DNA of 64,000 bases, from NCBI GenBank assembly GCA_018902385.1, contig JABSSW010000071.1, positions 1 to 64,000 on the forward strand. Direction: 5' to 3'. Origin of the DNA: Physcia stellaris. Lineage: Eukaryota > Ascomycota > Lecanoromycetes > Caliciales > Physciaceae. The translations under genes were made by a program, and so were the position numbers. Below, piece after piece: positions 1-64,000 of the stretch (the stretch's first letter is position 1; each line of letters opens with the position of its first letter). Under the pieces are notes generated by a model. That model was not told the origin of the DNA, ran no database searches, and worked only from the letters and a program-made list of their open reading frames with translations.

Positions 1-992
1 GCGATCGAAATGAAAAGACGAAATTTGAACTATTTTTTCTGTCAAATTGTGTTTTCTGATTTTCATTCTATTTATTTATCTGTGCAATATTGACGAAAAT
101 TGCTGTTTCATTGTGATTCATTGACCAATTAGATACATCTCATAGTTTAGACAGAAATACAATTTACAGATGATTCAGAGTTTCGCTTGACTAAACATCG
201 TGATGCATGAAAAGAAAAAAAAGAAAAAAAGCAAAATTGCAATCAAATGTGATCGTGAAAACACGTTAATGAATCATTGATCGAATGAATACGAACAACA
301 CAAACAATCGAAAATTTATTTTCACATACAATACGATGAGAAAAAATCGTTTGTCGAGAACTCGATGAAATGAATTTTACATACGTTAAATTTACGATTC
401 GTTTTGATAATTTATTGCAATCGTACAAATTCGATTTCAAAAAAAATAATGATAGTATTGAGATTTAGAATAATCACAATGAGATTTAAACATTTTACAG
501 TGCAGAGTTTCAGAACGTGACTATCGCGTAAAAATAAAGAAAAAGTATGCTTTGTTTCAAAACATATTCATCTCAATTCACAGCAATTTGAGCGAAATAT
601 TTAGCATTCTGTATTTGATTCAAAATTGAAATGGACACACTTGTCATAACTTTTTCGTATAAGTTCATGGAAATCGAAATATGTTCGCTGAAAATATTTG
701 TAAATGATAAAGAGTAAAACAATCACGATTTGAATAAATTTCATTAATACACATATTTTAAAGAAAATTGAAATATTCACTGAATTGTTTTTACGACGAA
801 TTTGTTTGATCACATTCAATTCTCGATCACGATCATAGATTTAATTTTGAAAAATTCGCACAATTTAGATACTTTTCGTACTAATGACATGATCAAATTC
901 TGAAAACAAAGTCAAGAAATGAACAGACACGACGTGCGACAAGAAAATCATAACGATTCGTGTCTGAAAAAAACGAAAAAAATTCGAGATTG
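1..992. other. AT-rich left edge, no gene recognised
   Basis: Very AT-rich sequence with the same composition as the rest of the left block: GG and CC almost absent, CG, CA and TG common. The short reading frames are low-complexity and match nothing I recognise. It would include the 3' end of the Helitron, but I could not find the expected terminal hairpin and CTRR end by eye, which mutation may have erased. Confidence 0.6.
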
Positions 993-2408
993 TCAATCGA
1001 ACACGTTAATTTCAATTTTATACATTTTATTGACAATACTTTTTAAACGTTCATATTCGATTATCGTTTGTTGATTCATTCGAAAAGTTTCTTTCAGACA
1101 AAGCAGAAATGAAAATTTGATTTCATCGTTGCGTTCTTTAAATGCGATGTATGCATGTTTTGAAACGAACATACTATTATCAAGATTTATCGATATGTCG
1201 ATCATTGTTAATGATGAATTTTTTTATAAACGATCAAAGCGAAAGCGTTCAAAATTGAAAATTGAATTCGAATGTAAAACACATCATACAACGTCTTGTA
1301 ATCGATGTAAAAAATCACATAAAATTTCTAGAGAATTGATATCAGTCACGTTGTAACGAATATGAGAAAATTTAATTTTTATACGTTCGATCATTGAAAA
1401 GATCACGATAAAATAATCTCTGTCATTTATTTTGATGATTGTCAATTGTTGATTATGTCTCGAGTTATGCAATTATTTTTCAAAAACATCATTCGAATTT
1501 CAGAAACGATCATCATTTCATTGAAAGCAAATTGCTTTTTGACAAAATATTTGTGAATCGATTCGAGCAACTTTCTGTCGCGTTTTTATTTTGAAACTTT
1601 GTGAACGATAACAGATAATTGCAAAAACTCGTTTCAGCAATAGCGCGTTTGAATCGTAACATTTCATTTTTTCGAAAATGAAACGAAATACATTTATGAA
1701 TAAAATCATCGATTCGAAATTTCTGTTCTCGTTGATGAAAAATATTCATGATTTTATCAACGATTTTTTCAAAACGAACAATTTCAAGAAATCGTTCGAA
1801 TTTTGAATCGCTATCGTGTCTTTTTGAAACGTCTCAAAATAACGAGACGAAAATTTTCAAACAAAAAATGAAAACTTTGACGATCGTTAATTGAAATAGT
1901 TGCAATAAATCGTCAAACACAATAACATGAAAATTTTCAAAAAAACGCATTTTTGTATTTTGACAAACAATTTCGAAACAAAAGTTGAAGCATTTCATTG
2001 TTGATCATGAAGATTTCATCAATAATAAAAATTTTGATTTTTTTGAAATCGTCTATTGAGTTTTCGATGCGAAATATATTGAATTGCAATGATTCATGAT
2101 TTGAATTTTTTTGAATATGATGGCAAATTGCTGTGAATGATTTTTTTTTTTCACGTTTTTGCAGCAATTTCGATAAAAATCATTTTCAAAATCAATAATT
2201 TACGATCATTGCATCACGTCACGAACGTGTGCAATAAAAAGAATTTTTTTGTTTCTTTTGAATTTGTGACGAAAAAATTTGTTTCTCGTGATTTTCGAAC
2301 TGTGACAAAAAAAAAATTGTTTATGATGCGTTGATACGTCACATATTGATTTTTTTCGAAATTTAAATTGTCGTCGAGCATCGAAATCGATCGAATTTTG
2401 ATTTGCAT
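993..2408 (-). pseudogene. PIF1-like helicase domain of the Helitron (pseudogene)
   Basis: Superfamily 1 DNA helicase region that would unwind the donor strand during rolling-circle transposition. The Walker A loop reads FFVTNSKETKKFFLL where the family has G-G-T-G-K-S; both glycines and the lysine context fit G-to-A change at GpG. Walker B reads IIDEIFMI (family IIDEISM). Motif III reads VIVFDDLLQL (family FGDxxQLPP). The C-terminal block has LDNSMFVSKHAYIAF, then EYERLKSIV, matching the PIF1 motif VI segment (AYVAxSR, then EYxRL). The four pieces are collinear over about 1.4 kb, with stops between them. Confidence 0.8.
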
Positions 2409-2986
2409 TTCAAGAAATTTTTGTCGTATGCATTCATTTTCGATTTCGATATTTCAAAAAACAAACGATGAATTGTTTTCAAATAAAGAATGTTGATTTT
2501 TACGTCACGTTTGACGATTTGAAATGTTGTTCAGAAATTCAAATCTCGATATTCGTTTGAATACAACATCATGAAATGATTTCGATAGCAGATGATCGTG
2601 AAATTTGATATAAATTTTCGAATTTTTTTCAGTTCGTCACGATTCAATCATGAGAAATTTTTCGTAAAAGAACGTTTTTCGTCGATCAAACGTCGTTCGA
2701 TGTTTCGAATCAAAATGTTTTGAATACGTTAATCGATGTAAAAGACGATTTTCAAATGAGAATATCATATTTTTTTTTTTGACAACGTTTTTCACATCAT
2801 TCATCGTTTCACGTTCAAGATTAACGATTGATTTAGTCAGATCAGATTGCGCGTGATAGTCGAAATACGTCAATTGATCGAAAAACGAATTTGAAAACGA
2901 ACAAAATATTTTTCGATTTGATTCTTGTAAAAAAATCAGATTTTTCGTTTTTTTATTTTTGCTCGAAGTAAATCTCGCTTTAACTG

Positions 2987-3523
2987 TCAGAAAAATTTGA
3001 CGAAAATCGATCGTTTTTCAGACAACGTGATATCGATATACATTACAGTTTTGTTGTATCGAAACATGTCGTAACTCAACATCAACATCATCATTTTCAT
3101 TGATTTCATTTTACGAGTCATTAGATGATCTTTGACGACGTTACGAGTGAACAAATTGTACATTTCGTTTGATTTCGCTTTGATAACGTATTTGCTGACA
3201 TAAACGACAAGATAAATTTCGATGATGTATTGAATATTCATATGTGCGTTTCAAATCAAAAGCATTTGAGCGTTATATGAAAACATTCAACGATTTTTCT
3301 CTTTCAATCGTTTGTAAATGTAACGATTGTCGTCGTTCACGATTTCAATCACGAGCGACAATGATTGAAAAAAATCATTTTTACATCGTGATTCGATGAT
3401 TAGATTTTTGCGACACATATTTGAACGACATGTGTGAATTTGATGTTTCGTGATTAAAGCGTGTAATTCGGACTTTTTTTTTTTATCGAGAACATTTGCT
3501 CGTATGAAGTTTTCGACGATCAT
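2987..3523 (-). pseudogene. Helitron Rep C-terminal region (pseudogene)
   Basis: Two adjoining open pieces. The upstream one (3287-3523) has a Cys/His cluster (HQIHTCRSNMC), then a Cys-Lys-containing segment and YIYKR, as in the Helitron block that precedes the 'VPYNP' motif. The downstream one (2987-3241) begins NIQYIIEIY and carries YVSKYVIKAK at about 3176-3205, which fits Rep motif 3, where the catalytic tyrosines sit. It ends with a stretch resembling the conserved region before the helicase. Assignment rests on motif order and position directly upstream of the PIF1-like domain. Confidence 0.7.
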
Positions 3524-5114
3524 TTCGAATATGAATTTTTGAATTCAAAGCAGAACATGAGTGTGAATGATTTTTCTTAATTGAAATTTCATTCGTTTCA
3601 TCATTTTTTTCAGTTTTTCGAAATCGAATATTTTCGAATTTCGCAAAAGATGAATTTTAAATGTTTTTCATCGAAAATGATAATATATTACAGTTTTTCA
3701 AAATCGATTATTCGAAATGATGTCGCGATTGTTTGTGTTTGCAAAAATTTCGACGTATTCAAGTCATTTTTCGGAAAATGTCGTCGTGAAAAACAAATGA
3801 AATCGACATGTTGCTTTCATGATGATGTTGATTTTCTGTTCAATTTGTATTCAATAAATAAAATCGATTCGCAATTGAGTTGAAACGATGATCGTTAAAT
3901 TTTCGTTGATAATCGTGTGAAACTCATAAACGTTTTGTTTGATCAATTTCGCTGTCGCAAAACGTTCGATCATTTGACGTTTTTTTCGTTCGATCATCAA
4001 TCTATTTGTGTTTTGAAAGATGCGAAATGATTCGATTTTCATGTACATTCATGTTGTTCAATAATGATCGTCACGAAAATGCGAAACGTTTCAATTCAGT
4101 TTGTATTGTGCGTTTTTGAAAAAAGTTTTGAAATAAAAATTCTTTTTTTACGAAAATGTTCGATTTCATAGAGATATAGTCAAGAGAATATTCTAATTTT
4201 CAAATTTTTATCATTTTTGAAATATCAACGATTCTCGTTGATCATGTTTTGTTTTTCAAAAAATCGATTGAAACGAAAATTTTCGTCGTGTGTTTTCGAA
4301 TCATATTGATCGACAATCACGATAAAATCGAATTTGTGATATGATTTTTTTTCATTTGAATCGAAAATTTCGAAAATCGAAAATTTCACAATGAAAATGT
4401 CGATGACGAAAACGATATAATTTTTCAAAAATCGATTGTGAATTTTCAATCAATTTGTTGCAGTCGTTAGATTTTTTGCATCTTGTTTTCTATCGAAAAT
4501 TTGAAAAAACGATTGAAAAAAATTTTCGATAGTATTCGAATAAAAAGTCAACGTTCGCGAATTTTTGAAAACGTACATGAAATTTTGATGTAAACGTGAA
4601 CAAACATTTTCAAATGAAATTACGATGATTTATTTGAAACGATTTTGTAAATTGTTCAATTGTTTCGAACATCGTCAACGTTTTGAGTTTTATTCAAATT
4701 CGTCATCAATTTCAAAAAAAACAGAAAAGTTCTGAATCGATGAAAAAAAAACATTATCTCGTCAAATCAAAATTTTATTTGAAACATTGATCGTGAATGT
4801 TTTTGACACGTATCGCACACGATTACGAGACGTTTTTCGTGTTCATCGAATTTGAAATGCAAAAATTGTCGAAAAATTAAAAAAAAATCGTATTTCACAT
4901 CGTTGTCGAAAACAAATCATTTCGTCTCGTCAAAAAACATGAGAATGTCGCAAAATGAACATGATGTTTTGAAAAAACGACGATTGTAATTTGTTCGAAA
5001 ATCATGCAACAATTTTTGAAAAACGATATGTTTCAAATATAACTGTGACGTCGAAACGTTAACATTCGAAATATACGTCGTTCTATTCGTTATTATAATT
5101 TCCGACTGCATGTT

Positions 5115-5290
5115 TGTCTTTCGATGAATTGATAAATGTCGATTTAAATGATTTTGACGTCGAAAAAAACGATTGCAATGTTCGCATCTTCAAACTTGAT
5201 TGCTGATATGAAATAAAAAATGTTTTGTTTTGATATTTTTTTTATTGAAAATTCTTTCACATGTATTGCAAACGTAGCGATTTTCTCGTT
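5115..5290 (-). pseudogene. Two tandem C2H2 zinc fingers, N-terminal part of the Helitron protein (pseudogene)
   Basis: The first finger reads YVCNTCERIFNKKNIKTKHF (then LFH) and the second CEHCNRFFRRQNHLNRHLSI (then H). Both are exact C-x2-C-x12-H-x3-H, joined by the classic seven-residue linker length, with one in-frame stop in the linker. They lie on the same strand and upstream of the Rep block at a distance (about 1.6 kb) that suits an N-terminal position in the same protein. N-terminal zinc-finger-like motifs are known in Helitron proteins. Alternatively they belong to an unrelated decayed C2H2 gene. Confidence 0.65.
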
Positions 5291-8220
5291 GAATTCGAAT
5301 TACGTTTTGAATGTTGAAATTTTTGATCGCAATTCGAATATCATATGTCGTTGTGATGCAATTCGATTTTTCAACAATCGTCATCATAGTTTCATTGAAT
5401 AAAATGTTAGAAAACGTAATTTGTCGAAACAATGAATTGCGAATAGAAAAACATTTTATCAAAATCGAAAACAAAAAAAAATTAAATTTCAAAATATCAG
5501 AATTGATTTATTTCAACTGCGAAACTGTATTGTTTTGATTGTACGAAAATGTAATATTGTATATAAGTTTATTGAGCACAAAAACACAACGATGACTGAA
5601 AGACGAAAAAACTCAAACAGTTTGAAAAATGAATATCGACTCAAACGAATCAAACAAATCGAAAAGACGAAAAAAGTGAATTTCAATTTCAAAATCGAAA
5701 ATTTCAATTTTTCATCAAAATTTGACGTATTTATCAGACTTGCGACGTGTGAATGCAAAAGTAATAATACGAATTAAAAAATGTTTCAAAAGCAAAATTC
5801 AATTTTATCTTGATGTGATCGTGATGAAACTTGAAAAATAAAACAAAATCGTCTGAAAAAAAATAAAATGAAAATTTTCATTTAGTTCGAAACGTCACGT
5901 GATCAGAACTTGATATAATCGATCGCTATGATGAACATAATGAATACGAAAATTATTTTTGAATCGAGACGCTTTATACGAACATCAATAAACTAAAACT
6001 AAAATGTCGACAATTCAAAGAAAAATCGAACGCGAATCATTGATGACAAAAACGATTTCTTTTTCAATTCAAAAAAATGTCGTTTTCAACGTCATATAAA
6101 ATTTCATTACGTTTGATTCTGAAAATCAATTGAAACGAAACAACAAAAATCGATACAAAAAAATCATTTAATTTGCTCATTATCAAATGTTTAAACGTAA
6201 AATCAAATCGTCATCGTTTGTTTTCATTTGATTTTTACATTTCAAAAATCATCAACTGTAATTTGATGTTGACGTTTTCGACAACATTTTTCGTGTTTCA
6301 TGTCATTTAAATGATTTTTTCTTTTCACGTTTGATTTTTTTTGTTGAAAAAATTTCGTTCGTCATTTCATCGACAGTCGTTTTTGCAATCGCGTCATCGA
6401 GATTCAATTTCACGAAAATCGAATGATCAACGTTTGAAATTATTGTGTTCGAATTGTCGTCATTTTCGATTTGAATTCGATTCACATGAAAAATGAACGA
6501 GAATTGTTGAGTTCGAATCGCGACAAATTCGATAAAAAAAATTGTAAATTTGAAAGAAATGTTAAAAGAAATTGTGAAAAAAAAGATTTGCGTTGTCGAG
6601 AAATTCGAAAAAACAAAACGTTCGAACGTGAATATTGTCGTTTTCAAACGTTTTTTTGAAATCGACGTCGAAAAACGCGTTTGCAAATCGATAAAATTGA
6701 AATTCGTTATTTCATCGAAAGCTAAATAACGAAACAATTGATTAAAATTCATACGAAAAAACGAAAAAAGAAATGAAAAAGATGAGTATCAATCATTTTC
6801 ATCGAGTTGAACAATATAAGTGACAATAATGTCGAGAATTTTTTCAATAGAAAAATTTCTGTTGTCGTTCAAATATTGATTTTTGTTTACATATTTTTTG
6901 AATTTGTAATAATACATAAACGAAAAAATTTGCTGAACAATCGATTAGCGAAACTTTTATGAACTTTGAGCATAAAAAACGTATTTGCGTGATTTTTTTA
7001 TTTTTTTGATCGTCACGATCGAGATCGTAAATTTTCATTGATTTGTAAAAATCGTTTTTGTATCATTTACAGATGCGACGACGCACATCATTCGCACACA
7101 ATCGATAATTTGAAAATCAATTTGAACAGCGATTGACAAATCGTCAATCAAAATCGTCGAATGTGAAAAAAGTTGAAAAGATTAGCAGAAATCACGACGA
7201 AATCGCAAAATCGAAATCAAATCTGATATGAAAAATTAGTTTTGAGCAGAATTTCGTCGCTCAGCAAATACGTGTTTTCGACTCAATGATGAGTTCGCTA
7301 GTTTGAAAATTGAATCAATGAAAGAAATTTACAATTTTTTGTTTTTTTCATTTCTGAATGTAAATGATTTCGAATTTGCGAAATTTGTTATTCGTTTGAA
7401 TTTGATCGTCAATTTCATCGACGATGACGAAATGCATGTTGTCGAATCGAAAAAAACTAAAATCATCAAAAAAGAAATCTATGAAAAGAAAAAAAAAAAA
7501 AAAAAAATGAATTTTGAGAAATGAATTGTGAACGATAATTAAAAACTTTGTCTGAATGATACGAAATGAGAAATGAAAAAAGAAAATTTATATATTCGAG
7601 ATTGACAATTGCATTTCTGATTCGAATTTGAAATATTCGTTTTGAATTTTTCAATTTTGAAATTCTGAATAATACGAATATCATTTTCGTCATAGCGATT
7701 TAGAAATTGAATTTTCAATGATTCGATCATTCGAACTTTGAATATCAATTGATTTTTGAATATTCATGATATGACAATCGATTTGTTGAGACGCTGACAT
7801 GATATTCATGTAATTTTCATTTTCTTTGCGTTTTGTCGATCAGTCGCATACGAGTAAATCGTATATGTGATACGAGTTCGAGCATTTTCGAATCGATTAA
7901 TAATTGAAATTTGAAATGATTCAATCATTCGAATTGAAAACATCAAATCATGATCGAATTCATGAACTTTAACGAATTGAAAATACGAATCTGAACGAGA
8001 TTATTTCATGCTGAAGAATTTCGAAACAATGATTGAAAAAAATATACGTGATTCGCGATATGCGACGACGATTTCGAAAATTCGAACGATTGAATCATTT
8101 TGTCTATGACGATCACGAAACAAAAGTTTGAAAATTGCTAAACGACAAAAACTTTTAAAAAAGACGCTAAAATGAAATGCACTAAAAAGAATTATTGTAA
8201 AAAATGTATATAGTATATGC

Positions 8221-8300
8221 ATATGATAAAAATATGATAAAAATATGATAAAAATATGAGTTTCATATGATAAAATAAAATAAAATAAGATAAAAAAAAT
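8221..8300. repeat. Short tandem repeat (ATGATAAAAAT)n and (AAAAT)n
   Basis: Three successive copies of an 11-bp unit (atgataaaaat) followed by an AAAAT-type microsatellite (aaaataaaataaaataagat). Simple repeat inside the AT-rich block. Confidence 0.85.
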
Positions 8301-10137
8301 GTTGAATTTTTCAAAAGTCAATTGAGATTTGTTTGAACAAAACGATCGATATTTGCGATTTCAACGTGATTTTGAAAAGTTTAAAACGCAAAATCATCAA
8401 CGTTTCATCGTATAATCGAAGAATGAATGTCGTCGAAAATCATGCTTTTTACGAAAAACGATGTTGTTGCTGTCATAATGAAAACAGAAATTGTTAATCA
8501 CAATTTTAACATTTCACGATGAAATCGATGCATCGTTACGAAAAGAATAATTTCAACATAATGCAAACAAACTTTGCACATCGAAATTAAATTAAACATT
8601 TATATAAATTTGTTGTTGATTTCGTACAATATTCTTTGTTGTCAAAGTAAAAAATAAACAGTTTTGCAAAATAGTCGTTTCTATCATCACAAATGCAAAA
8701 ATCAATATGTTTCAACTTGAAATTTTTTTTTTGTTTTTTTGCTTTTCTGCTTTCAGTTCGAAAGCATCATGAAAGAAACAGTTTTTGAACGTTGATAGCA
8801 AACTTTTCATCTTGAAATTAATTTCGATGTTTTAACGTATGTAATTTTGATTGCGTACAGTGTTTTATGCAAAAAAAATATGAAATTCAAAGATTTGAAA
8901 GAGCGAGATGTGAAATGAATAATGTTGAAATTATTTCATTTTCGTTGTCAATCATCGTTGTTTCTAATTCGAATCATTTTGTTTTTTTTTTGAAAACGTT
9001 TGTTCAAATTTCATTTGATTTTTTTTTTTTTTTTTGTCATAAAACTCGTCGATTTTTTTTTGTAACAATGTCGTTATCATTCGTTTGTACATTTTGTTTT
9101 TTTTGTTGTTGATCACATACATCGCGATTTTTTTTCAATTCATTTGTTCGAGTATGTTTTCGACGACACGTTTGAATTCAAATGCAAAAAACGAAAGCAA
9201 TGATTTGAATTTTGAAGAATAAAATCTATAGCGACGAAAAAAAAATTTACGATTATTTTTTCAGAATGAAAAGCGAAATTTTTTAAATGAAATGAGTGAA
9301 ATTGACGATGTTGCTAAAACGTTAAACAATGACATTATAATTTCAAGAAAAAATTATTTGCGAGACACATTATTCAAAAAAATTCGATCGAGTGAACATG
9401 ATTGAAACGAATTTGAATTTGAAAAACAAATATTTGAATATTTTTGACGCAAAATGAGTGAAAAGAAACGAGCAAATGTTTGAATGAAATAAAAAATCAT
9501 TACGACGATTGCATTTCGATAGATTTTTGCGATGATAATTCGAGAATTAAAAATGATACGATGAAAACGTTTTGTTTTTGCGCGAAAGAAAACGTTTCAA
9601 CAGTGACAATTGCACGACTCACACAGTTGCGTCAATTGTCAAAAATAATCGTTTCAAATAAAACGTCATAATGCATGTATTCGTAAAATCACATTTTTTT
9701 TTTCGCATCGATACAGCGTCAATTGTGAATGAAAAAAAAAAAAATTCAAAAAATCAATTTGAAAACAAACATTTCATTTCAATTGTTGTTTCATGATCGT
9801 CATGTCGTGAATTGATGTTTCGAAATCGAAAGAATTTTTTTCGCACGTTCGTTTAATTCAAGAATCGTCGTTTTCGCAATTTTTTTTTCATTTATTTCAA
9901 TTTCTGTTTTTCATTCAGCACAGTACAAAATCGTTCATTTTTCACATTTTGACGATGAGCTGTAATACGAAACTCTGAGTTTGAAAAACGTATTTTTGAC
10001 ACGATTTAACGCGTTTTTGAATTTTTATCACGTCGTAAATTTCACACACGTTTAATTGTGATCGTGCGATCGTGTTTTCGATAACGACGAAATGAATGAT
10101 TTTCGACATCAATACATGAAATTAATTTTTTTAATCA

Positions 10138-10345
10138 ATAGCAATTTTACGATTTGTTGCGTTTCTTTTTTTTTTTCATTTCAAATCAAGAAGTTTGTCG
10201 AAACATCTGTTGAAATCGTTTTTTTTCGATTTTTTTCAATTTTTCTTTTCTAATCATTAGCAATTTTACGATTTGTTGCGTTTTTTTTTTTTTTACAATT
10301 CAAATCAAGAAATCTGTCGAAACATTTGTTCGATTCGTTTCTTTT
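10138..10345. repeat. Two-copy tandem duplication, period about 119 bp
   Basis: The segment containing gcaattttacgatttgttgc, a poly-T run, then tcaaatcaagaa and tgtcgaaacat occurs at about 10141 and again at about 10260. The copies differ at few positions and in poly-T length. Followed by further T-rich, pyrimidine-skewed sequence to about 10560. Confidence 0.85.
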
Positions 10346-10744
10346 TCGTCTTTTTCATTTTTTTTTTTTTCGTTTCGCTTTTTATCATTCGTTTCGTCAA
10401 TATCATTACATCGTTTTTATTTTTTCGATCGACGTTTTCAACATTTTTTTTTTTTCGACTCGTACATCATTTCGTCACGATTTTGTTTTGACATTTTTTT
10501 GTGCAATCGTCGTTGTTTCGTCAACGTTTCAATCATTTTTTTCTTTGTTTTGCGTTCAGCATCAGTTTTCAACGTTGTCACAACAACAAAAAAGTAATGT
10601 TTATTGTCTGTTATATCTCACATGTTAGCAATGATTTCAAATTATCAATTCGATTATTTTGAGAATTTTCACTCGCGTCAGAATTTGCGTTTTGAATTTA
10701 TAATCATGAAATAATTCATTCGATTGTTCAACATTTTGTTCATC

Positions 10745-10826
10745 ATACGACTCGAACTCGCGATTTTCTGAATGAAAAGTGCTTATTTACAGTTTTAATC
10801 GCTAGATCATTCAGTCAGATTCGCTT
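10745..10826 (-). pseudogene. tRNA-like relic (mutated tRNA or tRNA-derived SINE)
   Basis: On the minus strand there is an A-box-like TGATCTAGCGATTAAAAC (10792-10809) and, about 30 nt further, a B-box-like GCGAGTTCGAGTCG (10748-10761). This is the spacing of internal RNA polymerase III promoters in tRNA genes. Stems are only partly complementary, as expected if G and C were lost at GpG/CpC. I cannot assign an anticodon. It may be a tRNA pseudogene or the head of a SINE. Confidence 0.4.
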
Positions 10827-11096
10827 CATTAGAATATTGATTTTTTATTTGCATATATATACACTATGCGACATTCAAACATATTTACATCTTTTCAATC
10901 AAGATCGCATTTTCGTCAATTTTTCATTTTTTCATTTTAACAATTTGCAATTCAGACATTTTCTACATTCGTGAATCTGTTTTTCGTAATTATTTTGTAT
11001 TCGTTCATTTGAATTATCAATCATTTGCTCGAAAACATCGTGACTATTTTCATTTTCGTTGAATTCATCATGGTCACTCAACTATCGATAATGCTG

Positions 11097-11109
11097 TAAC
11101 CCTAACCCT
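11097..11109. repeat. Interstitial telomere-type repeat, two units
   Basis: TAACCCTAACCCT, i.e. two full units of the fungal/vertebrate telomere repeat (TTAGGG on the other strand). It sits exactly where the AT-rich block stops and normal-composition DNA begins. Two units can arise by chance, but the position is notable. Confidence 0.6.
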
Positions 11110-33150: not shown

Positions 33151-33155
33151 ATTAT

Positions 33156-39804: not shown

Positions 39805-39809
39805 ATTAT

Positions 39810-46452: not shown

Positions 46453-46742
46453 TGTAAAACTCAAAAGATGTGACACCAGAGATGTATAACAGAGACGATT
46501 GTATGACTAGACTAATAATTGCAAAACTAACTATTTTACAAATTTCTGCTTATATAGTCAATCAACTTGTTCAATCGTACACACACTTCGAAGTCTATTC
46601 GAAAGTATGAGTTTGTTGAATTCAATCGAAGATTTGATGTTGACGTGATCAAATTGATTTTCTCGATGATCGAATTGCTTGTATAATTTTATCGAAATTC
46701 GACTCGCAATGCTCTATTGATTTGAACTCTGAATGTTTTACA
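46453..46742 (-). repeat. Element A right LTR
   Basis: About 290 bp, pairs with 42396-42686. In the first 155 aligned positions I count about 17 differences, all transitions. In coding orientation this is the 5' LTR. Confidence 0.9.
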
Positions 46743-49449: not shown

Positions 49450-49758
49450 TGTAAGACTCAAAAAATGTGACATCAAAAATGTATAACAAAAACGATTGTA
49501 TAATTAAATTAATAATTGCAAAACTAATTATCTTTTAAATTTTTGTTTATATAGTCAGTCAATCTGTTCAATCGTACACACATTTCGAAATTTATTCGAA
49601 AATATGAATTTGTTGAATTCAATCGAAAATTTGATGTTGACGTGATCAAATTGATCGTTTTCGTGATTTATCGAATTTCGATGATCGAATTGCTTAATAT
49701 AATTTTATCGAAATTCGACTCGCAATGTTTTGTTGATTTGAATTTTGAATGTTTTACA
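49450..49758 (-). repeat. Element B left LTR
   Basis: 309 bp, aligns throughout with 55658-55965 and with both A LTRs apart from one 19-bp length difference. Confidence 0.88.
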
Positions 49759-52700: not shown

Positions 52701-55657
52701 TTTATTCGAAACGTCAATTTTCACACGAATGAATTTAGTCGAATCGAAATGTTACAAAACAAAAATTTTCATAAACGTTTTGCGTAATCGTTTGAATGAT
52801 TCGAAAATTTCGAAAATCAAAAACTCGTTCGATAATCGTTTTTTATTGTGATTTCTATTTCGATTTCGTTTTTTTAGTTTTTTTTTTGTGAAGTTTTGTT
52901 GATTTCTTTAGCATGAAAATTAAAAATAATGTCAATTTATTGAAATTTTTGATAAATCGTTTATAGAAATTACACAATTCGAAAAATTCGAAAATTTCGA
53001 ACACGTTTTTAAATGCAAATCAATTTTGTATAATTTCGATTTTGTTTTGTTGCATTTGCATTTCTTTCGATGAAACGATAAAATTCAAAAATTCGATATT
53101 ATTTTTGAAAAATTTACATTTTTTCATGTTAAAAAAGAATTTGTGCTCTTTTAAACGATTTAATATTCATTTGACGTTTTCGACGTGCTGTGTTTCGTCT
53201 TTGAAATAAATGACTATATCGTTCAAATAGACAATGACGAACAAATCTAATCGCTCGATCAGAATTTTGTTGACGAAATTTTGAAACGTTGCAAATGCAT
53301 TAGTGAAATCGAAAAACATGACGATATATTCAAAATGTTCGTATCGTGTTTTGAACGTTGTTTTTCATTCGTTTTTTTTTTTAATACGAAATCGATTGTA
53401 AATCGTTATCATGTCAAAATTTGTATATTTGCGAGCTTTGTTTAGACGATTCAAATTCTCATCGATTAATGATAAAGAATATCTATTCTTGATCGTTAAA
53501 AAATGAAAATCTTTGTAATTTACGCACAATCGTAGAATTTCGTTCTTTTTTTTAACGAACAAAATTGAAACACTCGCAAAGAAAATGAAAAATTTGATAA
53601 ATTCGTTCTTTAAATGTTTATTCAAATATGTTCGCAAAATCTTGAATTCGTTTTCGAAAAATACGTAAATGAATTCATACGATGATTTTTTTTTTTATTT
53701 TAAATCTATTGCGTGATCATCGAACTCGTGATCAAATAATTCGTATGTTTTGTTCTCATTTGTCATGTCAACGAATTCTTTCAAAATTTCAAATAGAAAG
53801 TTTTTGATATTTTTCTTTTTCATTTTCGAAAAAACAAAATCGATTTGTAATCGTCGCGTTCGATGTGTACGTCATTCAAATATTTTATTTTTCAGAAATC
53901 ATTTGTACGAACATGACGAAAACATGTTTTTTTTCATTGAAAATTGCATTGATTAATTTTTTTGATTCGATTTTCTCGATACGATTCGTGATGAAAAAAA
54001 ATAATTTTACAATTATTGATCACGATTCGATTTTGTCGATGTTTCAATTTATATCGATTTCAAATAATTGTATTCAAAACAGATTTAAAATCATGTTTCA
54101 ATTTAAATCTGTTTCTAAAAAATTATCGTTAAAAAAACGATTCACGTCGTTTTCATTCTGTATTTCGAATTGCACGAAATAAATTTCATAAATTTTGAAT
54201 GAATGATTTTTTATGATCACTGTCTCGCAACTCGATACGTTGAATGATTTTAATTCGAGTCGTTTAGCAAATTTATAATTTATTAAATTGATTTTTGTTT
54301 TTGAATTCATAACGATTTCGAATTTCAATTTGTTTTTCTCGTCAAATGTTTTATTTATTTTGATTTTTGTTTTTTTGCACTTTGTCATGCGAAATTTTTT
54401 ATGACGACGTTTTGCGTTTTTGATTTCGATAATGAACGTGTTAAATTCGTTCAAATTTGAATTCATTCGATCATTTGTTATTGAATTTTTTTTTGTGTCA
54501 ATTTGATTGAAAATTATCAAATCGATTATTTTTTTGATTTTGATTCATGAAAAGTCTTTTCGAATGAGCGAATATTCGATTTGATATTTTTACATTTTTT
54601 GATATTACATTCAAATTTATCGCAATTTATGCAACGATCGTTGTTCACGATATTTTTGTATTCGATTTTGATTCAACGTCATAATTTTTTGAACTTGATT
54701 GATTCACGATTAAAATTATCGAATTTGAATTTTTTATCATTTTTTCGATTCTTTCGTCGATTTTTATTAAATTGACGATTGTTGTTTTCGTTTTATCGAA
54801 ATTATTTTCATTTTTTTTGCGTTTGTTAAAATCGTTATCAAATTTGTTTTGATTGACATTGCGTTGCTTTTTGCGTTGAAAATTTTTCGTTGTTTGAAAC
54901 GTTTCAAAATTATTTTTTTGTCGTTTTCAATTTCTTGTTCGATCAGAAAATTTTGATTATTTTGAATTAAATTCAATACGAAATTTTGCAATTCTATTGC
55001 TGATGAAAATTTCATAAATTCATGTAAATTCGAAAACAAAACGATGCGATGTACATCGTAATTTTTTACTGTTTGATTGATTTGTTGTTTATAATTTTTA
55101 TATTTTTCGAAATTATTTTTTTTCTAGTGAAAACTTTTTTTAGTATTTTTTTTAAGAAAGTCGACATATTTCTTTCAAATGTAATTGATTTTCGAATTGT
55201 TTTTGATTTTAACGTTTCAAAATAATTGTGCGATAAATTTTTTTTTCAAAAAAATTACAACAAAGAAAAGTTTAATTTTGTCAAAATTTTTGACGTAATC
55301 GTTCATTTGATTCATGTCGAATTGATTTTTCATTTTTCAAACGTATTGAATTCATTCTTTATAGTTATTTTCAACGAATAGTTTTGATTTGTTTTTCATT
55401 ATCTTGATGTAAAACGATTTTTTTTAAAAACAAAAATTTGAACGATCGAAAATACAAATGCACGTTGTAATGTTTTCATTCGAACATGTTGTTGTTGAAT
55501 ATACGTTCGATATTTTTTCATGATAACATCGAATTTTGATGAATTCAAAATGAATTCATTTTCAAAATTCGTGAAAATGTTAATGATATTGATGAAAAAT
55601 GTAAACATGCTGTATACACGAATGATGTTAATTTATTGATTATGATAATTATTAAAA

Positions 55658-55965
55658 TGTAAAATTCAAAAAATGTGACATCAAAAATGTATAACAAAAA
55701 CGATTGTATGATTAAATTAATAATTGCAAAATTAATTATTTTACAAATTTTTTTATATAATCAATCAATTTGTTCAATCGTACACACATTTCGAAATTTA
55801 ATCGAAAATATGAATTTGTTGAATTCAATCGAAAATTTGATGTTGACGTGATCAAATTGATCGTTTTCGTGATTTATCGAATTTCGATGATCGAATTGTT
55901 TTGATATAATTTTATCGAAATTCGATTCGCAATGTTTTGTTGATTTGAATTTTGAATGTTTTACA
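55658..55965 (-). repeat. Element B right LTR
   Basis: 308 bp partner of the copy at 49450. Compared with the A LTR at 46453, the differences in the first 150 bp are almost all C-to-T or G-to-A in B, at CpC/CpT or GpG/ApG. Confidence 0.88.
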
Positions 55966-55991
55966 TAACGTTTCGCAAATTCATAAATTTT

Positions 55992-58900
55992 TGTTATTGA
56001 AAAAATCATGAATGATTATCATTTTATTGTTTTGAATTTCGTTTTTTTGTAAATTACATGCAAAAAAACACAAAAAATGTGCGAATGTCAAAACATTAAT
56101 TTCAACAAAAACGCATTAATTTTTTTTCGTCAAATTATATCAATTGAATTTTGATTGCAACATTTGCGAAAAATTTGCGAAAATTTTTCAACATTTTTTC
56201 ACAACAATCGTTTGTTTTTTGTTTTGTATTTTAACGAATTCAGTTGAAATTTTTTGAAAATTTTCAACAATTTTTTCAACGATGTAAATTTTTTTCAACG
56301 ATGTAATTTTTTCAACGATGCGTTGTTTTGAATTCGTTATTTTTCAACGACGTAAATTTTGTAAAATTAAATCATACATCGATGCGAAGATTGCAAAAAC
56401 GAACGAATCGAAATTCGACGATTTATTGATTTCAAATATGACGTAAAATCGAATTGTAAAACGTGCGATCGAACATTTGAAAAATTGCGACGTTTTGAAT
56501 GTTTCGACGAAATAAAACATCGATATGAAATTTGATATTTAAAATTGAATAAAAAATACATCATGAAACAAATATCAATTGTTTGAATAATGCGATATTG
56601 ACGAAAATGCAAATCACATTATGATTTTGATAACATCATTGTGTTTCAAAATTTTCAAATATTTTTTGCGACATCAATGAATCGATATTTATGCGATTTG
56701 ATTGTAAAAAGTTCATAAAATATGTCGACGCGATGTCAAAACTGAAAACGATCGAGAAATCGAAAAAAAAATAAAAATCGATCGATGAACATAAATCGAT
56801 GCAAAAATGCAAAATCGAACTTTTCTGATTTGACTAAAATTTGTCAGAAAATCAAATCGATTAATATGCGAAAAAATCAAATATTTTCAATTTTTTATCG
56901 ATTTTTGTTTTTTTGATCGAATATTTTTTTTTGCAAAATCGAAATTAATGTTTTGCAAATACGTTTTTTCGAAACGATATTATGTGATTTTAATAAATCG
57001 TATTGCATAATACGTTTTTTCGAAACGATATTAAATCTAATCGTGAAAAATCATTTTTTCAAAATTTCATGTAATATTTTTTCAATTCGAAATTGTATAA
57101 TTGTCGCTTTGACGAACGAAACAATATTTCGAAAAAAAGTTGAAAACAGTGTTGATCGATATTGTTTTCGCAAAAATCGACGTTTTTTTTCTGAATCGTT
57201 TTGTTTTATTGTTGTTTTATCGAGTTGTACGTCTTTTTCGTTTATCTGCGAAAAGACGATATTTGTATAACAAATGTTTCAAAAGATTAATCAAGAAAAT
57301 TAACTAAAAAATTTTTATCGATAATTATCGATAAGATCGAAATTTTTAAAATTCGTAATAGAAAAAATTTTGAAAATCACAAAAATAATTTTTTCGAAAT
57401 TGTTAAACAATAAAACGTTTTTTCGAAACGATTTAAAACTAACAATACAATACGTTTCTTCGAGAAATGAAATTATTTGTCATTTTTTTTTTTTCGTAAG
57501 CGATCGAAGTTTCAAAAATACGTAAAAAAAAAAAACGAAAATCGTCGTGTTAAATCAATTAAAACAAAAAAATAAATTTTTTCGTATTCGTTAAACAATA
57601 AAACAAATCATACAATAATTTTCAATTTTTTCGATTAACGATTAGAAAAAAACGAACGAACAAAAAACAAACAAACAATTTTAATTTTTCAAAATAATGA
57701 CTTTTTCGAAAAAAAATCAATACTTTTTCGAAAGTAAATGAAAAGAAACGAAATTTCAATAACGTTATTTCATGAATATTTCATTGTTTTCAATTTTGAA
57801 AACATTTGACATGATTCAATCGATAAATCAATAAATGACGAAACGTTTTTGACAATGTTTGCAAACAGAAAACGAACGAAAATTCGAAAAAAAAACGCAT
57901 CGAAACAAATCGAAAAAAAAAAAAAAAAAAAAATGACGTGAAAAATCGAAAATTGACGCTGTTTTCGATCGAACATGTGTTGATTCAAATGTTTCGAATT
58001 TGATCGATTTGAAAACAAATAAAATCATCGCATGAAAATATAACGTAATGCGATTTTGTATGAAATCACATTTGTTTGCGAAATTGCATTTGTCAAAATC
58101 GCGAAAAAAAAACGAACGCATTTGATGTCGTTGCAAATCAAATAAATTCGACTTTTCAACGAACATGCGAAAAAATCGTTCACGATCAAATAAAATTTCT
58201 GAATTCGAATGTTTTGATGTTTCGATGACGAAATACGAAACGAAATAAACGAACAAACAATGTTTGCATTTTTCAACGATTTGCACATCGATTTGAATGT
58301 CGCAATCGAAAAACGAGAAAATTTCGATGCAACGACTGATCGTGAAACGATTTCTGTTCAAAATATCGATTTTTTGATGTTGCAATCGACAAAAATTTTG
58401 AAAAAAAAAATTAATAAAATGAATTCGAATACGTTTTCTGAACGTTCGCGTACAATTTCTGATAAACATCGAAAAAAAGACAAAAATTTCGATGACGTAA
58501 AAAATGACAAGAAAATGAAATCGATCGAAAACGACGAAACAAGAAAAATAAACGAAAAAAAAACGAAACAGATTTCGATTGAAATTTTGCGCAAACAATT
58601 TTTTCGATTTTTGATATGTCGAATGCGAATATGTTCGTGAAATTTGATGTTGTTATCGAATTTGATCGAATGTTTGCAACGTTTGCACGTATATTTTTTG
58701 TTCGTTTTTGATTAAACGAATTTTTTTTTTTGTTTCAATAATTTTTTCATTTTTTTTGAATTTTGTTTTTGATTTTCAATTCATGTTTACGCAAATGATA
58801 ATTTTTTTGTGTTTTTTTTGTTTGAACGAATCAAACGCATTTTTGATTAATTTGATTTTTTGATGTTTTTCGTACAAACATCGAAAATTTGCGTTATTGA

Positions 58901-59586
58901 TTGATTCGTCGAAAATGATTTTCAGAAACGCAAATGCAAAAAAAAAACGATCAAGAAAAAAAAACGAACGACGATGTTGATTCGAAAATGAAAAATGCGA
59001 AATTCGCAAAAAAAATACGAATCGTCATTTTGATTGATTTAATACGATAAATTTCGCGTAAAAATTCGATAAATAAATACAAAAATTCGTGACGAATTCG
59101 TAAAAACGATTCGTTTCGAAAAGTTCGTAAATAAATAAATAAATAAATGTTATCGATGTAATTGAAAATACAAAATGTATTGATCGTGTGTATCAAAATA
59201 TTGATTGTTGCTCGATGCAATTGAGTCGTTTTGATTTGACAAAATTGAATATTTTCAATGAAATTGATTATTGTTGAAATATTGCAAATCGATTGCTGTA
59301 TTGTTCGACGATTAAATATTTGTTCATGTTGTAATTGATATTAAATGTAACGAAAATTGTTAATTCGATTTTCATAATCTATTGAAAAAATCATGAATGA
59401 TTATCATTTTATTGTTTTGAATTTCGTTTTTTAATAAGTTACATGCAGATGAAAACACAAGAAATGTGCGAATGTCAAAACATTAATTTCAACAAAAACG
59501 CATTAATTTTTTTTTCGTCAAATTATATCAATTGAATTTTGATTGCAACATTTGCACAACATATTTGCGAAAATCGTATTTCAACA
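55992..59586 (-). mobile_element. Element E: decayed small LTR element, relative of element F
   Basis: Direct repeats of about 205 bp (about 55992-56203 and 59381-59586) bound about 3.2 kb. They align with the complement of the F LTR (shared gtgcga, aacgc, gtcaaattatatc-type blocks), so they are its mutated LTRs in inverted orientation. Inside, on the minus strand, are a C2H2-like finger starting YTCKRCK (about 58620-58705) and a segment FFRMFVEKSNLFDLQRHQMR corresponding to F's MFAEKPKPIGLSQHQIRR. No reverse transcriptase or integrase seen, so probably non-autonomous. Broken, several breaks, heavily mutated. Exact ends and duplication are not certain. Confidence 0.65.
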
Positions 59587-59847
59587 TTTGTCGTTATTCA
59601 TTTTCAATTGTTTCAATCGATTTTTTTTTTGATTTCAAAATTGTCGATTGTTTTTCGATCGTTTCGTAAACATTTTTCAACGTTTGAAAATTTTTAATGA
59701 CATTTACATATTTCGTTTTGATTTTTCGTCGTAAAATTAAATCGTGAAATTTTGCGACAAATTGTTCAATAATTACATTCATGATGATATCATTTTTATC
59801 ATCGATTTTTTCGATTGCACGAAAAAAATTGATCACACGTTCATAAT
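59587..59847. other. AT-rich spacer between elements E and F
   Basis: 260 bp of mutated-type DNA. On the minus strand it stays open and is rich in charged residues, but I recognise no family. Element F was inserted at its right end. Confidence 0.5.
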
Positions 59848-60009
59848 TGTTACGGTAAAACCTCCACATAGGGCTGGAGTCAGGATATCTTGACAAGAAC
59901 GGACTAGCGTCTTGGCAGCCTGGCCCATATCTCGCACTCTGCCTTCTAGATAGTAACAATTCAACTACATTATCCACCTTATTATGATTCAAGCATATTT
60001 GCCCTAACA
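59848..60009 (+). repeat. Element F left LTR
   Basis: 162 bp, TG...CA ends, directly repeated at 61964-62125, preceded by ATAAT. Confidence 0.93.
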
Positions 60010-61963
60010 AATGGTAGCATCATTCAAGAATACGATCCCTTGACTCTATCGTCAAGGATTAACCTCCTGCAGAAGCAGTCGAGTGACAGCCCGCCGAGAG
60101 CGCGAGAGTCTTATTGCGAAGCACATATCGCACCGAAGGCATTGCGCGAAGCCGAAAGCACGGCAACAGCATGTATACTGCTTATTAGTATTATCTAGTT
60201 GCTTGCAACAACCTAGCCTTTGAGCATCTAGTCAGCAATGACATCTAGTCATCGAGCACCCAGCCGCATGGCACCAGAATCTATCTACTCCAGTTACAAC
60301 TCGCCAGCATTCTCCATTCTCAAGAAATCATCGAGTTCTACAAGTCCACCAAAATTCGTTTTCTTTGCATCGAACGCTCAGTCCCCTCAACCAATTCAAT
60401 CTCGTCAGTCAGATATCCAGGAATTGAAGGATTGTCTTCTGCACTGGCAACAAACAATCAGTCGAACAATAACCCAAGAGGTGGATCAAACTATCGACAG
60501 TGTATTCAGTACTCATTTTTTGGGCAAAAGTAGAAGAAGAACGCCTGGCCAAGAAACGTGCAGAAGAAGAGCAAGCCAGACAAGTACGTATCGCCGAAAC
60601 AGCACGTCTTGCTGAAGAATATCGTCTGCTTGCAGAACAACAAGCAGAAGAAGTCCGCCTGACCGAGGAGCGTGCAGAGCTCTTGCAACAACAACAACAA
60701 CAACAACAGTTGAACAAACCCCCATTGAGAAGACGTCAAGAAGCCTTTGCATGCAGACGTTGCAGTGCGAATTTTTTCCGAGCAACACCAAGCTCCATAA
60801 CCATGTGCAAGATCACCACCAAAAGAAGCCTGCAAAGCCTGCAAGCGAGATCGCAGAGCCATCACCAAGCGAAGCCGCAGTAACACCCTCCACACCGAAA
60901 GCGGAGCCCGTCAAGATCACAACCGCAGAACCTACACCCCCTGCAACACCTCCACCAACGAGTGAGCCAACATTGGTGCTCACACCACCTATTAGCCAGT
61001 CAAAATCGACCTCCTATACCTCACTTCCTACTCCACCAAGCACACCGAGTGCAACACCACGAAAGCAGATATCCTGGGCCGAAATAGCCTCACGCCCAAT
61101 CATTGCACCAAAACCTTCGCGTCTCCCAGTCCCTACACCAAAGATTACACCAAAAGCGTTGGAGACTGCAGCAGTTACCTGCCCGCCTACTCCACCGCCT
61201 ACCCCCTACGCCAGTACCGAAACACCAACACCAATCATTTTACAATCGACGACCTGTACCGCATGTTTGCTGAGAAGCCCAAACCAATTGGCCTGTCACA
61301 GCACCAGATTCGCCGCTCTTTCCGCCGAGCGTTGGCCCTCGTCAATCGATTCAACGAGGCCCCATACAAACCAGCATCACGTCCTACTTCAGGCCTGCAG
61401 CCAATGAGAGCAAGCCGATTAGTCAGGGCTCGAAAACACCAAATCCGAGGAGTTTTCACCAACTCATGACTGCGGAACCAAGCCGCATTATTTAGCAAGT
61501 GGTCTGAGAAATCGAGCATTTTACCATACAAAACATCGACTTTCTCCCGCCCACATACCTCAGAGATATCGAGCATCCTGCCATACAAAATGCCAGGTAT
61601 CTCACGGTTCCAACTAATGGCCGCATCTTGCAAATCCACGGCCCGGTTACCTGCTTCAATTCAAGCCTCCACAAGCCTCTCCCACTCCTGCCGCATATGC
61701 TGTGGTACTTTCGGATCGAATAATGGCCTGCATCGGCACCTACGAGCAAACCATTTCGGTCATGCATCTCGCCATGGATCTGAGAAGCATCGAGCGCCCG
61801 GGCGCAATGTCATGGCACGGAGATCCTTGACCTCTTGACGGAGAAATAGGCCATTTCCTTACTTCTTTTCAGGTATTACTAATAGATTTCTCGAAGGATG
61901 GATCGCATGTCCCCGCCATGTGGCACAACGAGGGCGTTGTGATCTTCTTTCGTTGGTGGCATC

Positions 61964-62125
61964 TGTTACGGTAAAACCTCCACATAGGGCTGGAGTCAGG
62001 ATATCTTGACAAGAACGGACTAGCGCCTTGGCAGCCTGGCCCATATCTCGCACTCTGCCTTCTAGATAGTAACAATTCAAAAACTTTATTCATCTTATTA
62101 TTATTCAAGCATAATTGCTCTAACA
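61964..62125 (+). repeat. Element F right LTR
   Basis: 162 bp, followed by ATAAT. Differences from the left copy cluster in the last 50 bp; no obvious polypurine tract precedes it. Confidence 0.93.
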
Positions 62126-62130
62126 ATAAT

Positions 62131-63590
62131 AATTGTTCAAAATTTCATTTTTTTTTGTTGAATTGTTTTTAATTTGTCAAATCAATTTTTTCGAATTTTT
62201 TGTTTAATTTTTTTTTTTGAAAAACGTTTCAACAACAATGTCACGAAAATATTTTTGTTCGCAAAATTTGTTTCAGCATTTTTTTGATCATTTTTGAATC
62301 GTTGAATGATTTTTCAATTCAAAATTCGATTTCGTTTTTCAATTTTGATTCGATTTTTGCAATTCATTCGTTTGATTCAAAATCGTCGTCGAATGTTTTT
62401 TGATTTTTGAAATCATCGTCGTACAAATTTTTTTCGAAAATTTCTAAATAATTCAATTGAAATTTTTTCATTTTGATAAACTTGATTGATTGATTCTGAA
62501 TAATGAATGATTGTTGTATTATAAATCAAAAAATCGACAATATTGTTAATTTAATTAATTGAATTTTGTTGTTGAATAGAATTAAAATTACGTGTTCGAT
62601 TGATGTGTTTTTCAAATAACGTAAAAAATGATTGATTTTTCGAAACAATGTTCGAATGAACAAAATTGTTAATTCGATTCGTATTAAATGATAATGTAAA
62701 ATTGACGTTTTCGATAAACAATAAATGATAAAATTACGATTTTCTTTTTAAATGAAAACATTTTTTGAATAATGAATATCAAAACAAAAAATAATGTTTT
62801 GAAATTTTTGCAAATCAAATTTTTGTTTCGAATATTAAAAAAGTTTAAAAACAAATTTTTTTGAAAATTTTCAAATATACGCGTATGTCGTTATTTTTCA
62901 CTAAATTCGTTGACATTAATTATTCTGATAATAAATTCGTACGAAACATATTTGATGAATTTTCTGTCAAATAATGATATGAATGATTGATGTTTACATT
63001 GTCGTGAAATAAATATAAATTGTTTTTAATTTTGAAAATGTTTCGATAACATCGAATATTCACAACGTAACAAAATTTTTTAACGATATAATTCGTTGAT
63101 ATTGATGTTATTGTTGAATAATTTGAATTGCACGTCGTTTTTCGTCGTTTAATGTTGAATGATTCGAACGACACGTGTTATGCGTAATGTGTGAATTGAT
63201 TCATTTAGAAATTATGAACGACGAAATGTCAATTTATGTACAGTAACTGCGAATCAGTTGCCTGATCATCATTCATTTAATATGAAACGATGACAAAATT
63301 CTTGCCAAATGTCTTGCAAAAATATTCGATCTAATTTCAAATCACTCAATTTGATTTTATGTCATAACAATTTGTCAATCAAAAAAAAAATCAATGTTTT
63401 TCATTGAGTTTCATGTTTTATCATTATGCGTAATCATGTCATGCATCAATCTATTTTTTTCGTTTTTTTTTTGTCGTTACGATCATCAAAGTTTTGCGAA
63501 TGATTGAATTCGTATTGCGTTTCAATGAAATTCTGAAAATTTTGTAATTCGAAAATGAATCGTCACTCGTCATATTTCGATTCATAATCG
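62131..63590. other. AT-rich, mutated DNA without recognisable gene
   Basis: Same composition as the other mutated blocks. It should contain the 3' part of the gypsy element whose chromodomain lies just to the right, but no LTR pair can be seen because the element leaves the window. Confidence 0.55.
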
Positions 63591-64000
63591 ATTCATCTGA
63601 CTAGATATTGAATTACGAGAATTTTGTTGTACTTTTTGATACGTTTGTCGACTAATTTCTCGATTTCATAAAACTTGTATTGATTCGTATCGTTTTCGAT
63701 GTCAATGAAATCAAAATAATGAAAACGAAAACGATTGTAAAAATCAACGTCAACAAATGTTGATTCGAGTTGTGCAATAAACACAACGAAATGAATTCGT
63801 CATGTTGATGACAATTTCAATCTGTACGCGAAACGTTCGATGCGTTCAAAAATTCGAAATGATTCGCAACGTTGTTGAAATAGTTTCGAATTTGATTTGT
63901 CAAACAGCTTGTAATCTTTGTTGAATTGTAAATAAATTTTTTTCATTTTGTTTTAGTCGAATAAAAGTATGACGCGAATCATAATATATTTTGATTTTGA
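63591..64000 (-). mobile_element. Partial fossil gypsy element with integrase chromodomain (chromovirus type)
   Basis: On the minus strand IAQLESTF (gypsy PVFHISQL-like end of integrase) is followed by FDFIDIENDTNQYKFYEIEK, then LVDKRI and IQYLVR. This matches the linker and chromodomain of fungal chromovirus integrases (a YEVEKLVDKR, then QYLVRW pattern). The element continues past the right edge of the window. Broken and mutated. Confidence 0.65.

What the first reader, a model, noticed from the sequence alone, without database searches (positions are those of the whole stretch)
1..64000. C-to-T decay with CpC/CpT (CpY) specificity, the reverse of canonical RIP
Seen: in 4261-4380, counted by hand, CC, GG, CT and AG are all zero, while CG is about 10, CA+TG about 12 and TA only about 3 of 120 bp. 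Aligning the first 150 bp of the element A right LTR (46453) with the element B right LTR (55658), about 20 C/T or G/A differences all have the C followed by a pyrimidine; none is at CpA or CpG, though many such sites are present. Known: repeat-induced point mutation in Neurospora and most Pezizomycotina favours CpA and so creates TpA. Inferred: this genome has a repeat-directed mutator with CpY preference. Standard RIP indices (TpA/ApT, CpA+TpG over ApC+GpT) would call these blocks RIP-negative despite extreme AT content.
Basis: partly seen in the sequence, partly recalled or inferred. Interest (0 to 1): 0.92.

Follow-up and report, generated by a model that had tools for sequence, protein, structure and literature searches.

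The report
Transposon mutator that erases CC pairs
In this stretch of what looks like a filamentous fungus genome, transposon DNA has been mutated C-to-T almost only where the C is followed by C or T, the opposite of the rule best known for fungal transposon-mutating defence, so the usual index tests do not notice it.

Summary
The AT-rich blocks have almost lost CC/GG: 0 in 13,377 bp and 0 in 10,578 bp, where base composition predicts about 433 and 438. CT/AG is strongly depleted; CpA and CpG are not. The GC-normal control blocks show no such loss. The cleanest test is the paired LTRs of two retrotransposons with target-site duplications, A and C. They differ at 43 scored positions: all 43 are C-to-T (or G-to-A) at CpY, 0 of 131 CpA/CpG cytosines differ, no other substitution. 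CpC goes first: element A has lost about 95% of expected CC but about 20% of CT. Simulating CC=100%, CT=80% on GC-normal DNA reproduces the AT-rich blocks; a Neurospora-like or nonspecific rule does not. Decayed Ty3-type pol frames run 666 and 690 codons broken only by TGA, as the rule predicts. Standard RIP indices read negative. Best reading: a RIP-like mutator with inverted neighbour preference, CpC > CpT >> CpA, CpG. Enzyme, timing and repeat dependence are unproven: no genome is held for the window.

The parts
1..11071 (.). AT-rich block 1 (GC about 0.28), CC/GG almost absent; in the window self-comparison (120 bp or more) its only repeat is a short tandem at 10127-10368
   Evidence: GC 0.281, CC rho 0.02, CT rho 0.39, CG rho 2.85; 7 CC/GG where 1276 would be expected at gene-block density (bases 1-10900)
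11100..32380 (.). GC-normal block with genes (RTA1-like, TRS130/TRAPPC10, NACHT, ankyrin): main control
   Evidence: pooled with 60100-61900, GC 0.491, CC rho 0.97, CT rho 1.06; Pfam hits
32381..42395 (.). AT-rich block 2; no CC/GG at all from 32381 to 42958
   Evidence: 0 observed, about 438 expected from base composition
33156..39804 (+). Ty3/gypsy LTR element C, LTRs 33156-33475 and 39485-39804, target-site duplication ATTAT; pol frame 34729-36726 broken only by 12 TGA
   Evidence: RVT_1, RT_RNaseH, Integrase_H2C2, SH3_Tf2-1; 16 of 16 LTR differences at CpT, 0 of 69 CpR changed
41036..42394 (-). Remnant of another Ty3-type element (RNase H and integrase zinc domain); 453-codon run with 7 TGA (run chosen as free of TAA/TAG)
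42396..46742 (.). LTR element A, LTRs from 42396 and 46453, target-site duplication TGATC; less decayed (GC 0.36): CC nearly gone, CT mostly still present
   Evidence: 27 of 27 LTR differences at CpY, 0 of 62 CpR changed, no other substitution; CC 28 of 509 expected, CT 464 of 578 expected
46746..48815 (-). Pol remnant D, Ty3-type reverse transcriptase; 690-codon run with 12 TGA
46477..59853 (.). AT-rich block 3: 13,377 bp without one CC or GG
   Evidence: 0 observed, about 433 expected from base composition
49450..55965 (.). LTR element B, LTR family of A, interior related to C in inverted orientation; flanks do not match (ATTAT / TAACG), so the two LTRs may not be one insertion
   Evidence: LTRs differ at 8 CpT, 3 CpA and 2 transversions (context-scored)
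59848..62125 (.). LTR element H (GC about 0.5, ends TGTTA/TAACA, target-site duplication ATAAT) between AT-rich blocks; its LTR transitions are all at CpC
   Evidence: 4 of 4 transitions at CpC, 0 of 22 scored CpT changed, plus 5 transversions

Best explanation
The AT-rich blocks are retrotransposon-bearing DNA hypermutated by a RIP-like genome-defence process that turns C to T on both strands and chooses its cytosines by the base on their 3' side: CpC first, CpT next, CpA and CpG essentially never. Repeated exposure removed all or nearly all CC/GG, most CT/AG and roughly 45% of the G+C while CpA and CpG were left. Protein frames stay open except at tryptophan codons, which become TGA; proline (CCN) and glycine (GGN) codons vanish. 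Shown here: transitions only in the clean LTR pairs, both strands, the 3'-pyrimidine rule, CpC before CpT, confinement to the AT-rich blocks. Inferred: that the trigger is repetition, that it acts before meiosis, that the TGA sites were Trp codons, and that the enzyme is a RID/Masc1-class DNA methyltransferase with altered neighbour recognition (that class was present in the fungi with CpA or CpT signatures, PMC4352252, passages).
For:: A and C LTR pairs, 43 of 43 scored differences at CpY, 0 of 131 CpR changed, 0 other substitutions; in the A pair each copy was hit (15 and 12 changes); both strands are hit (A and C together 23 C/T and 20 A/G); fitted 3'-neighbour rates are CC 1.0, CT 0.70-0.85, CA 0-0.10, CG 0 for AT1-AT3 and CC 0.9, CT 0.3, CA 0, CG 0 for element A; trinucleotide divergence for CC=1/CT=0.8 is 0.010-0.021 over AT1-AT4, against 0.57-0.59 for my Neurospora-like setting, 0.28-0.33 for a nonspecific one, 0.56-0.70 for no mutation. 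CC lost before CT; the longest TAA/TAG-free runs in three AT-rich blocks are 690, 666 and 601 codons; 60 order-2 Markov simulations of those blocks reach at most 497, and the two longest carry reverse transcriptase matches; control not depleted. CC/GG counts change sharply at block edges; the 5' base of hit and surviving CpT does not differ (p 0.97).
Against: One window of one unidentified genome. B, without a matching target-site duplication, has 3 CpA differences and 2 transversions among 13, and the AT3 fit allows 0.10 at CpA. Block 1 shows the signature although no repeat partner was found for it in the window, and of three of its frames scanned two had no Pfam match and one a weak C2H2 match, so repeat dependence is unproven. 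H shows 5 transversions beside 4 CpC transitions. The pol runs were picked for lacking TAA/TAG, and no TGA aligned to a Trp of Ty3 in the places inspected. In N. crassa and T. reesei CpC is reported as the least preferred RIP site (PMC5496416), so a CpC-led RID has no precedent in what was seen. No methyltransferase gene could be searched.
Confidence: 0.8

Rival explanations
1. Slow decay: a DNA methyltransferase keeps transposons methylated at CpC/CpT, and spontaneous deamination of 5-methylcytosine does the rest, with no burst of mutation.
For: It would give the same direction, neighbour rule and transposon confinement. A methylation-deamination route is the explanation proposed for CpG-type signatures in PMC4352252 (passages).
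Against: In the A and C LTR pairs 43 of 69 visible CpY sites differ, while 0 of 131 CpR cytosines and no other base differ over about 610 aligned bp. The contrast is larger than the roughly ten-fold excess usually quoted for methyl-C deamination (recalled), but this is not a formal exclusion. In Pyricularia, methylation of a retrotransposon prefers CpA over CpC and CpT (PMC7979813, passage).
Confidence: 0.13
2. A cytidine deaminase (APOBEC-like or other) edits retrotransposon DNA or cDNA at cytosines with a 3' pyrimidine.
For: Strong hypermutation of retroelements, no other substitutions in pairs A and C.
Against: Both strands are hit in each pair: C/T and A/G counts 17 and 10 in A, 6 and 10 in C, whereas cDNA editing is strand-biased (recalled). 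APOBEC enzymes read the 5' base (recalled); here the 5' base of hit and surviving CpT does not differ (24 A, 21 T, 5 G against 12, 11, 3).
Confidence: 0.05
3. Ultraviolet damage at dipyrimidines.
For: CC and CT are dipyrimidines.
Against: TC with a 3' purine is also a dipyrimidine and a UV hot spot (recalled), yet no CpR cytosine changed in pairs A and C, although their left LTRs hold 37 and 41 TCA+TCG; TC is over-represented (rho 1.45-1.55). The GC-normal blocks are spared.
Confidence: 0.01
4. Ordinary AT drift or an assembly artefact.
For: AT-rich blocks are common in fungi (recalled).
Against: A nonspecific C-to-T rule misses the composition (divergence 0.28-0.33 against 0.010-0.021 over AT1-AT4), and drift does not give 43 of 43 changes in one neighbour class.
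Confidence: 0.01

Closest known systems
Repeat-induced point mutation (RIP) of Neurospora crassa and other Pezizomycotina (RID-dependent)
   Same: C-to-T on both strands of transposon copies, near exhaustion of the preferred site, AT-rich blocks beside normal gene DNA
   Different: Neighbour order is turned round: N. crassa CpA > CpT > CpG > CpC, T. reesei CpA~CpG ahead of CpT > CpC (PMC5496416, passage; one sign is missing in the held text); here CpC > CpT >> CpA, CpG. TpA falls instead of rising, and new stops are TGA only
CpT-biased RIP (Magnaporthe oryzae, Botrytis cinerea, Sclerotinia, Anisogramma; also seen by alignment in other RIP-capable fungi)
   Same: CpT is a real target, in some of these the leading one (PMC4352252; PMC7882544; PMC2621366)
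   Different: In the species tabulated there CpT accompanies CpA (PMC4352252; PMC10998396); here CpA is spared and CpC leads
CpG / TpCpG hypermutation of Basidiomycota (Microbotryum, Rhizoctonia) and the truffle CpG signature
   Same: C-to-T bias with one neighbour class
   Different: CpG is a protected site here (CG rho 2.1-4.4 in the fully AT-rich kilobases)

Membership tests
RIP (repeat-induced point mutation) | C:G to T:A transitions, on both strands | tested here: met
   A and C pairs, 43 of 43 transitions, none other; both strands. B and H pairs also hold 2 and 5 transversions
RIP (repeat-induced point mutation) | Confined to repeats, single-copy genes spared | tested here: inconclusive
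   Control not depleted and Ty3-type elements carry it, but block 1 has no repeat partner in the window and no genome is held
RIP (repeat-induced point mutation) | CpA preference creating TpA | tested here: not met
   TA rho 0.37-0.48, CpA rate fitted 0-0.10, 0 of 73 CpA changed in A and C pairs
RIP (repeat-induced point mutation) | RID/Masc1-class methyltransferase required | not testable with these tools
   no whole genome held
RIP (repeat-induced point mutation) | Acts in the sexual cycle before meiosis, on duplicated DNA | not testable with these tools
   Needs crosses
CpT-type RIP | CpT as a target together with CpA | tested here: not met
   CpT met (42 of the 43 changes in A and C), CpA not (0 of 73)
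CpG/TpCpG hypermutation | C-to-T at CpG | tested here: not met
   0 of 58 CpG changed in A and C pairs; CG strongly over-represented

The most novel reading that the evidence does not exclude
A transposon mutator whose catalytic enzyme is not a RID-class methyltransferase at all, or a RID so remodelled that it reads a 3' pyrimidine, acting as a separate defence type: it empties DNA of CC/GG, leaves frames open except at Trp, and so removes Pro, Gly and Trp from every transposon protein it saturates.
Probability: 0.2. Interest if true: 0.93.

Novelty: new variant of a known kind. Interest (0 to 1): 0.76.

Why it matters
Neighbour preference is a main clue to how the RIP enzyme picks its cytosines, and the transposon signatures seen in the passages read here are CpA, CpT or CpG. 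A lineage with CpC first and CpA/CpG immune would give a natural contrast for mapping the specificity region of the enzyme. [quoted passage not shown]

Tried and rejected
Finding relatives failed: window 60616-61404 in genome contigs and viral contigs, and the C pol fragment in viral contigs, gave no confirmed locus. No genome is held for the window, so PF00145 could not be searched. No tRNA and no Rfam match at gathering score. The organism was not identified; 'Pezizomycotina' is an inference from RTA1-like, NACHT/ankyrin and TRS130-like genes and recalled knowledge.

Divergent comparisons (C against B, 66-70% identity; A against B and C) show CpA and CpG differences too; these are different element lineages, where background divergence mixes in, and they were kept out of the LTR-pair counts. 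B was left out of the 43-of-43 count because its flanks do not match; with B included, A+B+C give 51 of 54 transitions at CpY, 3 at CpA, and 2 transversions. H was counted apart. Positions next to alignment gaps were not scored.

The absence of Pro, Gly and Trp follows from the absence of CC/GG and is no separate evidence. Aligning TGA positions to Trp in solved relatives did not help: Ty3 has no Trp at the aligned places inspected.

The simulation uses GC-normal DNA of this window as a stand-in for the unknown original transposon sequence, and its comparison settings (for example 'Neurospora-like': CpA 0.9, CpT 0.6, CpG 0.25, CpC 0.1) are my own choice. AT4 was not fitted.

Literature: ten searches; passages of 15 papers, for one also outline and abstract. 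In PMC5602860 and PMC11105155 the 'CpC' hits were a strain code and an author name. None of the passages seen reports CpC as the leading site of transposon mutation. Clutterbuck 2011 is not held; supplementary files were not searched; several listed papers were not opened (e.g. PMC7493409, PMC2973834, PMC10170752, PMC6180176, PMC4320822).
Full report
What was checked. The window alternates between AT-rich blocks (1-11 kb; 32.4-59.8 kb with a less decayed island, element A, at 42.4-46.7 kb; 62.1-64 kb) and GC-normal blocks (11.1-32.4 kb, 59.9-62.1 kb). In the first 150 bp of the A and B right LTRs, 18 of 18 transitions are at CpY, with 1 other substitution.

Composition. Four AT-rich blocks have CC rho 0.00-0.03, CT rho 0.21-0.39, CG rho 2.85-3.59, CA rho 1.19-1.40, TA rho 0.37-0.43; the GC-normal control has CC 0.97, CT 1.06, CG 0.85, CA 1.11, TA 0.73. 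Three stretches of 13,377, 10,578 and 5,969 bp contain no CC or GG, with about 433, 438 and 228 expected from base composition. The control pools 11100-32400 with 60100-61900, which lies inside the young element H.

LTR pairs. The two LTRs of one element are identical at insertion (established for LTR elements), so their differences are later mutations. A (duplication TGATC) and C (ATTAT) have matching target-site duplications. A: 27 differences, 26 CpT and 1 CpC, 0 of 62 CpA/CpG cytosines changed. C: 16 of 16 CpT, 0 of 69 changed. No other substitution in either pair. Together 43 of 43 at CpY against 0 of 131 at CpR, Fisher p about 6e-26. B has non-matching flanks and gives 8 CpT, 3 CpA, 2 transversions. 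H (ATAAT) gives 4 transitions, all CpC, and 5 transversions; CpC 4 of 19 against CpT 0 of 22, p 0.04. The 5' base of hit and surviving CpT does not differ.

Order of targets. Taking gene-block density as the starting point, element A keeps 28 of 509 expected CC/GG but 464 of 578 CT/AG; AT1, AT2 and AT3 keep 7 of 1276, 0 of 1135 and 0 of 1516 CC/GG and 426 of 1450, 356 of 1291 and 249 of 1723 CT/AG. CpC is therefore hit well before CpT. The gene block is only a stand-in for the unknown original transposon composition.

Simulation. Applying C-to-T on both strands to GC-normal DNA with CC certain and CT 0.8 lowers GC to 0.271 and reproduces the trinucleotides of AT1-AT4 (divergence 0.010-0.021). 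CpA-only gives 1.07-1.18, a Neurospora-like mix of my choosing 0.57-0.59, a nonspecific rule 0.28-0.33, CpG-only 1.06-1.21, CC-only 0.24-0.37, no mutation 0.56-0.70. The same CC=1/CT=0.8 setting fits the less decayed element A badly (0.23); its own fit is CC 0.9, CT 0.3 (0.008). The four free fits (AT1, AT2, A, AT3) return CpA 0-0.10 and CpG 0.

Coding consequence. By the genetic code, CpY change makes a stop only from TGG (to TGA), because CAA, CAG and CGA need CpA or CpG changes. The pol runs of C (666 codons) and D (690 codons) hold 12 TGA each; the other five frames of the same stretches hold 11-25 and 7-29 TAA+TAG. The runs were picked for lacking TAA/TAG, so the test is their length: the three longest runs in three AT-rich blocks are 690, 666 and 601 codons, and none of 60 Markov simulations exceeds 497. 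Both long runs carry reverse transcriptase matches, and C also RNase H, integrase zinc and Tf2-type SH3 matches. That the TGA sites were Trp codons is inference: Ty3 shows no Trp at the places inspected. [quoted passage not shown]

Rivals. UV, drift and cDNA editing are contradicted (see rivals). Slow methyl-C deamination is the serious one; the LTR contrast favours an active burst but does not formally exclude it.

Comparison. Passages seen give CpA, CpT and CpG as known transposon signatures (PMC4352252) and CpC last in N. crassa and T. reesei (PMC5496416). CpT-led bias is in print: M. oryzae and B. cinerea T4 (PMC4352252), Neurospora Tad1 by alignment (PMC2621366), RIP-capable fungi in a survey (PMC7882544), CpA with CpT in Anisogramma (PMC10998396). 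Weaker CpA preference is noted for Monacrosporium haptotylum (PMC3828140). Monilinia is described with CpA and a CpC-to-TpT double change (PMC8959702). The Rhizoctonia AG8 table lists CpC as the closest-spaced single dinucleotide class of SNP (214 bp genome-wide), though its text stresses CpG (PMC4014442); that is a heterokaryon SNP count over genes and repeats, but it is the nearest hint of CpC in what was seen. In ten searches nothing seen reports a CpC-led, CpA-immune transposon mutator; Clutterbuck 2011 and most subscription papers were not available.

Verdict. A strong and internally consistent signature; it works like RIP but fails RIP's usual neighbour rule, so it is filed as a new variant, with enzyme, timing and repeat dependence unproven.

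Noticed in passing
59848-62125: A GC-normal LTR element (ends TGTTA/TAACA, duplication ATAAT, LTRs of about 162 bp) sits between fully decayed AT-rich blocks; the one interior frame scanned (60616-61404) has no Pfam match.
   Followed up: partly
34729-36726 (+) and 46746-48815 (-): Long frames interrupted only by TGA in decayed pol genes could be mistaken for genes using TGA as a sense codon.
   Followed up: yes
27731-30457 (+): NACHT (NPHP3_N) and ankyrin-repeat frames close together, a layout common in fungal NLR-like genes (recalled).
   Followed up: partly
33148-33155 and 49442-49449: The 8 bases before the left LTRs of C and B are the same (TCGATTAT); chance or insertion-site preference not tested.
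   Followed up: no
literature: PMC4014442 Table 2: In Rhizoctonia AG8, CpC SNPs are listed as more densely spaced than CpG ones, although the text stresses CpG.
   Followed up: no
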